This document shows positions 21,415 through 53,094 of a stretch of DNA of 64,000 nucleotides, in pieces. Location: contig NZ_CP016771.1 of NCBI RefSeq assembly GCF_002288005.1, forward strand, positions 124,001-188,000, given 5' to 3'. The DNA comes from Candidatus Nanopelagicus hibericus (lineage in GTDB: Bacteria; Actinomycetota; Actinomycetes; Nanopelagicales; Nanopelagicaceae). Within the stretch, counting starts at the first letter, position 1. The number at the start of each line of letters is the position of its first letter. The notes beneath the pieces are model-generated. The model did no database searches and was not told the origin of the DNA. It worked only from the letters and a program-made list of their open reading frames with translations. The translations under genes and the position numbers were made by a program.

Positions 21415-21819
21415 ATGCCAAAACCAAGTAAAGGCCCACGCCTAGGTAGCGGACCAGCACATGAGAAATTATTGCTGGGCACACTTGCTGCGCAACTTTT
21501 TGAAAAAGGAAAGTTGACTACAACTGAAGCAAAAGCAAAACGCCTTCGCCCGTTAGCTGAGCGATTAATTACTCATGCTAAAAAAGGTGATCTGCCAGCA
21601 CGTCGTCGAGTAATGGCAAGAATCTCCAACAAATCTGTAGTACATACTTTGTTTACAGATATTGCCAAAAGATTTGAATCTCGTGATGGTGGCTACACCC
21701 GTATTACCAAAATCGGTCCGCGCAAAGGTGATAACGCACCAATGGCAGTGATTGAAATGGTTGAAGCGGGTGCACCGGCTAAAAAAGTTGCTAAAAAAGC
21801 TGCAGCGAAAGCTGAGTAA
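21415..21819 (+). CDS. rplQ: 50S ribosomal protein L17
   Basis: L17 (134 residues) sits near the tunnel exit. It begins [51 protein letters not shown] and ends in a basic [15 protein letters not shown] tail, shorter than but similar to the L22 tail in this window. It is the last alpha-operon gene; its terminator appears to lie inside the start of truA. Confidence 0.97.
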
Positions 21820-21839
21820 TAGCGCAACTAAATAAGATT

Positions 21840-22676
21840 ATGACTAAACCCACTCTTGAAGTTGAGAGTGGGTTTTCTCGTTTAAGGATTGATTTATCCT
21901 ATGACGGCAGCGATTTTTCTGGTTGGGCCAAGCAGCCAGGACTTCGAACCATCCAAGAAGAGATTGAAACCGCACTTTCAACAATTACTAGAACCCAAGT
22001 TGCCACAATTGTTGCGGGTCGAACCGATGCGGGTGTGCATGCAAAACATCAGGTGCTTCACCTTGATTTACCAGCTGAGATTGAGATTGAAAATCTAGCA
22101 TTTCGATTAAATCAGATTTTAAAAAAGGATATCAGGATTTTGTCTGTCATTAAAGCGCCTCAGTATTTTCATGCCAGATTCGGCGCAACCTCAAGGAGTT
22201 ATCAATACAAAATTACTGACGGCGGCCAAGTCACCGCACCACTTGATCGATATGACAGCGCCGAGTGGTTTAGAGCATTAGATATTGGGTTAATGAATCA
22301 AGCTTGCCAATCAATAGTAGGTGAGCATGATTTCTTTACTTTTTGTAAGCATCGTCAAGGGATGAGTACGGTGAAAAATTTGATCAAATTTGATTGGCAG
22401 CGAGATGAAAAGGGTGTGGTGGTTGGATTAATCCAGGCCAACTCTTTTGGTTATAACATGGTGAGAAATTTAGTCGGTGCTGCAGTTTGTGTTGGCGAAG
22501 GTAGATTTGAAGTTGGCTGGCTTCGAAAAATCCTAGATGAGAAGGAAAGAGTGTCAGATAGTTATGTTTTTCCAGCAAAGGGATTGACACTTCTTTCAAT
22601 CCAATATCCACCAGCTGAGCAATATTTAGCCACATACAACCAATATTTCACCCTACAAGATGCAGCTGAGGAGTAG
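21840..22676 (+). CDS. truA: tRNA pseudouridine(38-40) synthase TruA
   Basis: TruA makes pseudouridine at tRNA positions 38-40. The 278-residue protein has LSYDGSDFSGWAKQPGLRTIQEEIE near the start and the catalytic aspartate in VAGRTDAGVHA (about residue 63), followed by FHARFGATSRSYQYKI. The only in-frame start before the conserved region is ATG 21840, which gives about 14 residues of extra N-terminus; no Shine-Dalgarno is visible. Those first codons form an 11-bp terminator-like hairpin, so expression must involve read-through or an internal start. Confidence 0.93.
   Translation: MTKPTLEVESGFSRLRIDLSYDGSDFSGWAKQPGLRTIQEEIETALSTITRTQVATIVAGRTDAGVHAKHQVLHLDLPAEIEIENLAFRLNQILKKDIRILSVIKAPQYFHARFGATSRSYQYKITDGGQVTAPLDRYDSAEWFRALDIGLMNQACQSIVGEHDFFTFCKHRQGMSTVKNLIKFDWQRDEKGVVVGLIQANSFGYNMVRNLVGAAVCVGEGRFEVGWLRKILDEKERVSDSYVFPAKGLTLLSIQYPPAEQYLATYNQYFTLQDAAEE
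21846..21878 (+). terminator. Intrinsic terminator of the alpha operon inside truA codons 3-13
   Basis: AAACCCACTCT (21846-21856) pairs perfectly with AGAGTGGGTTT (21865-21875) around an 8-base loop, ending in TTTTCT. This is a typical rho-independent form, though the T-run is short. It overlaps the truA reading frame, since truA starts at 21840 and has no later start codon before its conserved domain. Confidence 0.65.
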
Positions 22677-22708
22677 GGCTGGTTTTTAAGCGGGGGGTTT
22701 TTCTAGTT

Positions 22709-22738
22709 TTGACCCCAAGCGGTATCAGCAGGTAATCT
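22709..22738 (+). promoter_or_regulatory. rplM-rpsI promoter, TTGACC-N18-TAATCT
   Basis: TTGACC at 22709-22714 and TAATCT at 22733-22738 with an 18-base spacer. The -35 hexamer and spacing equal those of the rpsL promoter. The start point would fall near 22745, giving a leader of about 50 bases. Confidence 0.65.
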
Positions 22739-22765
22739 TGCGCCTCTGGAAATGACCCGCTTGGG
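22714..22765. promoter_or_regulatory. 9-base inverted repeat straddling the rplM promoter
   Basis: CCCAAGCGG at 22714-22722 and CCGCTTGGG at 22757-22765 are perfect inverted copies. The left copy lies at the start of the promoter spacer and the right copy in the early transcribed leader. A full RNA hairpin cannot form from this promoter, so DNA binding by a dimeric or looping regulator is possible. Confidence 0.35.
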
Positions 22766-22796
22766 ACAATCCTTATCTTAAGAAAGGCAGATGCTT

Positions 22797-51887: not shown

Positions 51888-51897
51888 AGCCTTAAAT

Positions 51898-51930
51898 AAA
51901 AAACCCCACCTAAATTAAGTGGGGTTTTTT
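51898..51930. terminator. Bidirectional intrinsic terminator between icd and the orphan ABC ATPase
   Basis: AAAAAACCCCAC (51898-51909) pairs perfectly with GTGGGGTTTTTT (51919-51930) around a 9-base loop. The A-run and T-run make it work on both strands, matching the convergent genes on each side. Confidence 0.93.
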
Positions 51931-51939
51931 AATTTGTAA

Positions 51940-53022: not shown

Positions 53023-53041
53023 GATTAATAACTCCTTCTTC

Positions 53042-53059
53042 CGGGCAGGTACGCGCCCG
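53042..53059 (-). other. Hairpin in the 5' region of the orphan ABC ATPase gene
   Basis: CGGGC and GCCCG pair around an 8-base loop, about 5 bases upstream of the AAGGAG ribosome site on the minus strand. It could affect mRNA stability or initiation; there is no T-run. Confidence 0.3.
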
Positions 53060-53078
53060 ACGATCCGTTGGATGAAGG

Positions 53079-53094
53079 TCTCACGGTTGTGAGA
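53079..53094. promoter_or_regulatory. Palindromic operator candidate TCTCAC-GGTT-GTGAGA
   Basis: A perfect 6-base inverted repeat with a 4-base centre, 57 bases before the start of the orphan ATPase and 100 bases before the CNNM gene on the other strand. The size and symmetry suit a dimeric repressor (GntR, LacI or ROK type). Confidence 0.4.

What the first reader, a model, noticed from the sequence alone, without database searches (positions are those of the whole stretch)
21840..21878. Terminator of the rpsM-rplQ operon lies within the first codons of truA
An 11-bp perfect stem with an 8-base loop and TTTTCT sits at 21846-21878, while the truA ATG is at 21840 and no other start codon exists in frame before the conserved domain. 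truA also lacks a visible ribosome site. The same bases therefore act as a terminator and as a coding N-terminus, so TruA level would depend on read-through or a leaderless start.
Basis: partly seen in the sequence, partly recalled or inferred. Interest (0 to 1): 0.55.

Follow-up and report, generated by a model that had tools for sequence, protein, structure and literature searches.

The report
Transcription stop signal inside truA start
In a large group of freshwater bacteria, and in many of their soil relatives, the RNA hairpin that appears to stop transcription of a ribosomal-protein operon also spells the first amino acids of the next gene, truA, so evolution has kept one stretch of DNA working as a stop sign and as protein code.

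Summary
At 21846-21875 a 12-bp hairpin with a U-rich tail starts 6 nt after the truA ATG (21840), 20 nt after the rplQ stop. In all 94 Nanopelagicales loci examined (17 genera) a start codon stands just 5' of, or at the foot of, a hairpin that lies in the truA coding frame. The stem covaries. Its codons fold far better than synonymous recodings (50 of 7200 equal it; neighbouring truA windows behave as chance). The codons behind it are biased to U (CGT in 92 of 94 against 15% background). truA has no Shine-Dalgarno (2 of 82, against 54 of 59 for rplQ), no leaderless -10, and no promoter-like site in 150 nt (0 of 94; rplM control 39 of 94). The hairpin reaches other Actinomycetia families (30 of 89 sampled loci), where CGT marks it too (16 of 30 against 2 of 59). 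Best reading: a real operon terminator embedded in truA. truA is expressed by read-through and initiated by ribosomes coming off rplQ, whose presence excludes the hairpin. Leaderless expression is disfavoured. Termination and coupling in vivo are inferred, not shown.

The parts
21415..21819 (+). rplQ (ribosomal protein L17), last gene of the rpsM-rpsK-rpsD-rpoA-rplQ operon; stop TAA 21817-21819
   Evidence: Pfam PF01196; names of the other operon genes read from sequence, recalled
21820..21839 (+). 20-nt spacer between the rplQ stop and the truA ATG; no Shine-Dalgarno, no -10 at leaderless spacing
21840..22676 (+). truA (tRNA pseudouridine synthase A), 278 aa; the N-terminal MTKPTLEVESGFSR is encoded by the hairpin and its tail
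21840..21842 (+). truA start ATG; predicted to pair with 21879-21881 in the extended stem (AUGA 21840-21843 with UCGU 21878-21881)
   Evidence: 71-nt fold; AUG mostly paired in 67 of 78 relatives
21846..21857 (+). 5' arm of the terminator hairpin
   Evidence: covariation
21858..21863 (+). loop (sequence varies among relatives)
21864..21875 (+). 3' arm of the terminator hairpin
   Evidence: covariation
21873..21883 (+). U-rich tail TTTTCTCGTTT; includes the conserved CGT codon 21879-21881; expected RNA 3' ends about 21878-21882 (inferred)
21690..21839 (+). 150 nt upstream of truA in which no promoter-like site is found in this genome or its relatives

Best explanation
The hairpin and U-tail are the intrinsic terminator of the alpha (rpsM-rplQ) operon, and the terminator lies inside the first 14 codons of truA. 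Most transcripts stop at about 21878-21882 (inferred). A minority read on and are the main source of truA mRNA, since no promoter is visible. truA has no ribosome site of its own; its AUG, 20 nt after the rplQ stop, is used by ribosomes that have just finished rplQ (reinitiation, or unfolding by the terminating ribosome; inferred). A ribosome on that AUG covers the 5' arm (+7 to +18), so initiating truA and folding the terminator exclude each other. Once the hairpin has formed, it also holds the AUG in its foot, so a stopped transcript, which would carry a start and 13-14 codons but no stop codon, is hard to initiate on. Shown here by comparison: the hairpin, the tail bias, the open frame, the fixed start position, and the absence of SD and promoter. 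Inferred: termination efficiency, coupling, exclusion in vivo.
For: Same anatomy in all 94 Nanopelagicales loci, start ATG 89, GTG 4, TTG 1. Synonymous recoding: hairpin codons z -5.24, 50 of 7200 recodings as stable; five other truA windows z between -0.10 and 0.14. Covariation: 96.0% of cells paired, 6 of 15 pairs with double changes, 27 such cells against a shuffled mean of 2.6; structures slid by 1-3 columns give 33-57% paired. Within-genus codon identity given the same residue is 0.84-0.88 in hairpin codons against 0.33-0.61 in the truA windows behind them. U-tail: T in codons -27..-15 z 9.4, 0 of 300 recodings; CGT at -21 in 92 of 94 against 267 of 1823 background Arg codons; the same CGT in other families mostly where the hairpin adjoins it, 16 of 30 against 2 of 59, p 8e-8. 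Streptomyces griseus Term-seq ends carry a GC stem, 'CGT' and T-rich sequence (PMC8914203, section read). No SD, 2 of 82, against rplQ 54 of 59. No promoter, 0 of 94 against 39 of 94. Ribosomes can prevent terminator hairpins (PMC12548453, passages).
Against: No transcript ends, expression data or protein N-terminus were available. In several genera the U-tail is interrupted (TTTCGTCG), and GC-rich families have almost none, so termination may be weak there. PMC12548453 (passages) says coupling falls off over distance increases under 20 nt; here the distance is 9-63 nt, median 24, and structure just 3' of the stop codon tends to reduce coupling. Streptomyces keeps the hairpin intergenic with an SD-led start behind it, and 37 of 89 sampled class loci have no strong hairpin, so the arrangement is dispensable in the class. 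17 of 94 Nanopelagicales loci have another in-frame ATG/GTG/TTG; those inside RLRxDL would remove the first strand, but they are not formally excluded. In genus g2, 40 of 600 recodings were as stable.
Confidence: 0.6

Rival explanations
1. Passive leaky terminator: the hairpin is an ordinary terminator with some read-through, and the overlap with truA is a harmless by-product of a short intergenic region. Ribosomes play no part in whether it folds.
For: Streptomyces has the hairpin between the genes with truA starting behind it, so the terminator does not need the overlap. Internal terminators that lower downstream expression in ribosomal-protein operons are known (PMC10450193, abstract).
Against: The start stays at the hairpin foot, without SD, across 17 genera. 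The overlap also occurs in large genomes of other families, for example a 6.2-Mb member of f4 (G298, L248), so compaction alone does not explain it.
Confidence: 0.24
2. RNA-level element that is not a terminator: the hairpin represses truA translation, protects the 3' end or is a processing site.
For: The AUG is predicted mostly paired in 67 of 78 loci; U-poor tails in GC-rich families; Term-seq papers note stable structures at processed ends (PMC8914203, section).
Against: Codon bias to U directly behind the stem in Nanopelagicales, and the CGT mark that occurs with the hairpin in other families, are terminator-like and not needed for a simple blocking hairpin.
Confidence: 0.1
3. truA has its own promoter inside or just behind rplQ and is leaderless or has a short leader.
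For: No SD, and leaderless genes are common in actinobacteria (recalled).
Against: TANNNT at leaderless spacing is below shuffled expectation, 8 of 82 against 13.0; -35/-10 pairs 0 of 94 upstream, while the rplM leader control gives 39 of 94. rplQ 3' codons show no clear excess conservation in the four genera tested.
Confidence: 0.05
4. Chance or protein-level motif: PTLxxESGF is conserved as peptide and the palindrome follows from it.
For: The residues are conserved within the order.
Against: Synonymous recoding breaks the fold; residues change in step with the stem between genera; in the wider class sample the residues differ while a hairpin stays.
Confidence: 0.01

Closest known systems
Intrinsic (Rho-independent) terminator
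   Same: GC-rich stem, short loop, U-rich tail, at the end of a ribosomal-protein operon
   Different: Stem and tail are codons 3-14 of the next gene and stay in frame with its start
Partial terminators inside ribosomal-protein operons (E. coli rplL-rpoB attenuator and rpsU-dnaG T1, recalled; archaeal RP-RNAP operons, PMC10450193 abstract)
   Same: Would lower a house-keeping gene behind abundant ribosomal-protein mRNA by leaky termination
   Different: Those I recall lie between genes; here the terminator includes the downstream start region
Bifunctional terminator that also sequesters a ribosome site (proposed in PMC2965389, passages read, which says no case had been shown by 2010)
   Same: One hairpin would act on transcription and on translation start
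   Different: Here it lies downstream of the start codon, in coding sequence, at the end of another operon, and is conserved across an order
Translationally coupled gene pairs (review PMC12548453, passages read)
   Same: Short distance, no own SD, structure over the start of the second gene
   Different: The structure is also a terminator, so coupling would act on mRNA synthesis too
L17 downstream element (Rfam; seen only as a term, content recalled)
   Same: RNA structure downstream of rplQ
   Different: Not among the Rfam matches of this region at E up to 5; recalled as a Lactobacillales element

Membership tests
Intrinsic terminator | Stable GC-rich hairpin beyond chance | tested here: met
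   -17.3 kcal/mol, 1 of 200 shuffles; covariation
Intrinsic terminator | U-rich tract directly after the stem | tested here: met
   TTTTCTCGTTT in the window; U bias against synonymous recoding z 9.4; weak in several genera and in GC-rich families
Intrinsic terminator | Transcript 3' ends at the tail, factor-independent termination | not testable with these tools
   needs Term-seq or in vitro transcription
Translationally coupled gene pair | Short or overlapping stop-start distance | tested here: inconclusive
   20 nt here, 9-63 nt in relatives; in other families often GTGA or CTGA in frame near the rplQ stop
Translationally coupled gene pair | Second gene lacks an independent ribosome site | tested here: met
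   SD in 2 of 82 unique upstream regions, rplQ 54 of 59
Translationally coupled gene pair | Expression of the second gene depends on translation of the first | not testable with these tools
   needs a reporter
Leaderless gene | -10 element 5-9 nt before the start codon | tested here: not met
   TANNNT 8 of 82 against 13.0 in shuffles
Known Rfam cis-regulatory family | Match at or above gathering score | tested here: not met
   best local matches far below their gathering scores

The most novel reading that the evidence does not exclude
The element is a ribosome-gated valve: the operon terminator is opened when a ribosome leaving rplQ occupies the truA start, so truA mRNA is made in proportion to close transcription-translation coupling. 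When no ribosome is there, the same hairpin stops RNA polymerase and then seals the orphan start codon of the truncated, stop-less transcript, avoiding non-stop translation and tmRNA rescue. The valve would be class-wide in Actinomycetia, with the TruA N-terminal tail existing mainly because it must encode a terminator.
Probability: 0.3. Interest if true: 0.8.

Novelty: new variant of a known kind. Interest (0 to 1): 0.6.

Why it matters
It is a clear natural case, kept across an order and recurring in its class, of one sequence selected at once as terminator and as protein start. It turns a hypothesis in print since 2010 (terminator hairpins that also control translation start) into a locus that can be tested. 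It also links ribosome supply to a tRNA-modifying enzyme, and predicts ribosomal-protein transcripts that end within a started, stop-less reading frame.

Tried and rejected
Rfam families: none fits. TruA autoregulation through a tRNA-anticodon-like hairpin: dropped, because loop and stem sequences change freely and GC-rich versions lack a U at the expected place (reasoning only). AUG pairing as the reason for the conserved CGT: not sufficient, because CGT is kept where the ATG is at -57 instead of -60 (for example L116, L118, L119, L122) and in GC-rich families without that ATG; a U-tail explains both. Compaction of a small genome: not sufficient, because large-genome families show the overlap too. 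Generic repeat or multicopy element: single copy. Paper searches gave no report of a terminator in the truA start; the library lacks most subscription journals. Rows dropped: L097 (contig ends inside truA) and L265 (no N-terminus) before all counts; 10 of 94 loci with another stem register before alignment A1, leaving 84, of which 73 unique; L002-L006 were not counted with the 94; 2 of 40 phylum loci without motif. The N-terminal-hairpin class was selected by hairpin strength, so its recoding z (-3.01) is partly by construction. Of 219 Nanopelagicales genomes with a match (296 searched), 95 loci were taken.

Full report
What is there. The window is G000:C1:124001-188000 of a 1.22-Mb genome; the nearest named records are Nanopelagicaceae and 'Ca. 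Planktophila' entries. rplQ ends at 21819. After 20 nt comes the truA ATG (21840), and 6 nt into the gene a perfect inverted repeat, 21846-21875, followed by TCTCGTTT. RNAfold gives 12 bp and a 6-nt loop, -17.3 kcal/mol, z -4.07, 1 of 200 shuffles as good; in a 71-nt fold the AUG itself pairs with the CGU 3' of the stem. The pattern is single-copy in the genome. In the 64-kb window a stricter scan lists four other strong sense-strand hairpins with a T-rich tail just behind a gene (35056, 51897 on both strands, 57741); none of these overlaps the start of a following gene.

Conservation in the order. A TruA search of 296 Nanopelagicales genomes matched 219. I took 95 loci; one is cut off inside truA and was dropped. 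All 94 have a hairpin between the rplQ stop and the YDG motif of TruA, with a start codon (ATG 89, GTG 4, TTG 1) just 5' of it or at its foot. By the stem score, 89 of 94 reach 25; the five lower ones are the four g14 loci, with a 12-nt loop, and L171. In 77 of 94 this is the only in-frame ATG/GTG/TTG since the last stop, and in 77 of 94 an in-frame stop separates rplQ from that start. Stem sequence changes between genera with both arms: CCCACTCTC/GAGAGTGGG in most, CCCGTCC/GGACGGG in g6 and g9, GAGCCCGCC/GGCGGGCTC in g5, ACGAGCCCG/CGGGCTCGT in g7.

RNA-level selection. On 73 unique sequences in one register (10 of 94 loci in other registers were set aside) 96.0% of cells are paired, 6 of 15 pairs show double changes, and 27 cells have a double change against a shuffled mean of 2.6; slid structures drop to 33-57% paired. 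RNAalifold by itself predicts 9 of these pairs, 5 with double changes. Against synonymous recodings the hairpin codons have z -5.24 (50 of 7200 recodings as stable); five further truA windows give z between -0.10 and 0.14. In the separate run by genus most of the recodings that were as stable fall in g2 (40 of 600), 2 in the other genera. Within genera, codons with the same residue are identical in 0.84-0.88 of comparisons in the hairpin and 0.33-0.61 in the truA windows behind it.

Tail. T content of the four codons after the GGG of the stem is z 9.4 above synonymous expectation (30 unique segments, 0 of 300 recodings). Another window, codons +3..+15, is z -6.3 below, which I do not explain. 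Codon -21 is CGT in 92 of 94, although CGT is 267 of 1823 Arg codons in the same genes. This is not only pairing with the AUG: loci with the ATG at -57 keep CGT, and in other families CGT at -21 is found in 16 of 30 loci with the hairpin next to it and 2 of 59 without (Fisher p 8e-8, without correction for relatedness; 11 of 22 families). Streptomyces griseus Term-seq ends were reported to have a GC stem, 'CGT' and T-rich sequence (PMC8914203, section 22 read). I take stem plus tail as a terminator.

How truA is expressed. An SD-like match lies before 2 of 82 unique truA starts but 54 of 59 rplQ starts. TANNNT at leaderless distance occurs in 8 of 82, below the shuffled 13.0. A -35/-10 pair is found in 0 of 94 regions of 150 nt before truA, in 39 of 94 after the truA stop (rplM leader, positive control) and in 3 of 94 inside truA; the consensus scan also finds none on the + strand within rpoA-rplQ. 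So the visible source of truA mRNA is the alpha operon read through its terminator, and the visible source of ribosomes is rplQ, 9-63 nt upstream, median 24. This step is inferred. A review states that terminating ribosomes can prevent terminator hairpins and that translation can unfold structure over a coupled start, but also that coupling declines with distance increases under 20 nt and with structure just behind the stop (PMC12548453, passages).

Geometry (inference from coordinates). The AUG is +1, the 5' arm +7 to +18, and the expected RNA end about +39 to +43. A ribosome with the AUG in its P site would cover the 5' arm, so initiation and hairpin exclude each other. A stopped transcript contains the AUG and 13-14 codons without a stop codon. 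The hairpin holds the AUG in its foot (unpaired probability below 0.5 in 67 of 78 loci with ATG at -60) and could keep ribosomes from starting on such RNA; the CGU partner lies at the expected RNA end, so in a stopped transcript this lower helix may be incomplete.

Beyond the order. Of 393 class genomes searched (390 matched) I analysed 89 loci outside the order (90 fetched; L265 has no N-terminus). A strong hairpin lies in the truA N-terminal region in 30 (22 family codes), further upstream in 22, and none is found in 37. Among the 30, 13 have an ATG/GTG/TTG 5' of or at the 5' foot of the hairpin; 6 have none there but a GTG at -24, at or just behind its 3' foot; 3 have only others; and 8 have none within 100 nt, of which 7 have an in-frame CTGA near the end of rplQ. 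Streptomyces keeps the hairpin between the genes with an SD-led GTG behind it. Outside the class 3 of 38 loci have such a hairpin, and 24 of 38 have a start at -24 or -27 (counted by me from its table). So a TruA start right at the domain looks older, and the terminator-encoding tail looks like an Actinomycetia feature (inference, no tree built).

Known or new. Terminators, leaky terminators in ribosomal-protein operons and translational coupling are known. A terminator that also controls a ribosome site was proposed in 2010 with no case shown by then (PMC2965389, passages). I found no report of a terminator within the truA start (open-access library only). I rate it a new variant of a known kind. 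The dual coding is well supported; the ribosome-gated valve is a hypothesis with direct tests.

Noticed in passing
22674-22790: Between truA and rplM a promoter-like TTGACC...TAATCT and a conserved leader (GGAAATGACCC...GGGACAATCC) with an inverted repeat CCCAAGCGG/CCGCTTGGG in this genome; most of it is kept in the six genus members printed. Possible L13-operon leader.
   Followed up: partly
L199, L219, L224, L228, L229, L235, L249 (truA N-terminal frame): In seven of 30 class loci with the hairpin, truA has no in-frame ATG/GTG/TTG within 100 nt before the domain but an in-frame CTGA near the end of rplQ: possible CUG starts overlapping the rplQ stop.
   Followed up: partly
L182, L192, L247, L254, L257, L262 (-24): In these GC-rich loci the best start candidate is a GTG at or just behind the 3' foot of the hairpin, with SD-like G-rich sequence inside the 3' arm: start and SD might both be sequestered.
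   Followed up: no
21903-21914 and relatives (+3..+15 behind YDG): T content is far below synonymous expectation (z -6.3) right behind the Tyr codon of YDG; unexplained.
   Followed up: no
51897-51931: A 35-nt near-perfect palindrome with T-runs on both strands between convergent genes: bidirectional terminator.
   Followed up: no
53026-53085 (- strand): msiK RNA motif (RF01747, 57.5 bits, gathering 33), the only Rfam match in the window.
   Followed up: no
   Followed up: no
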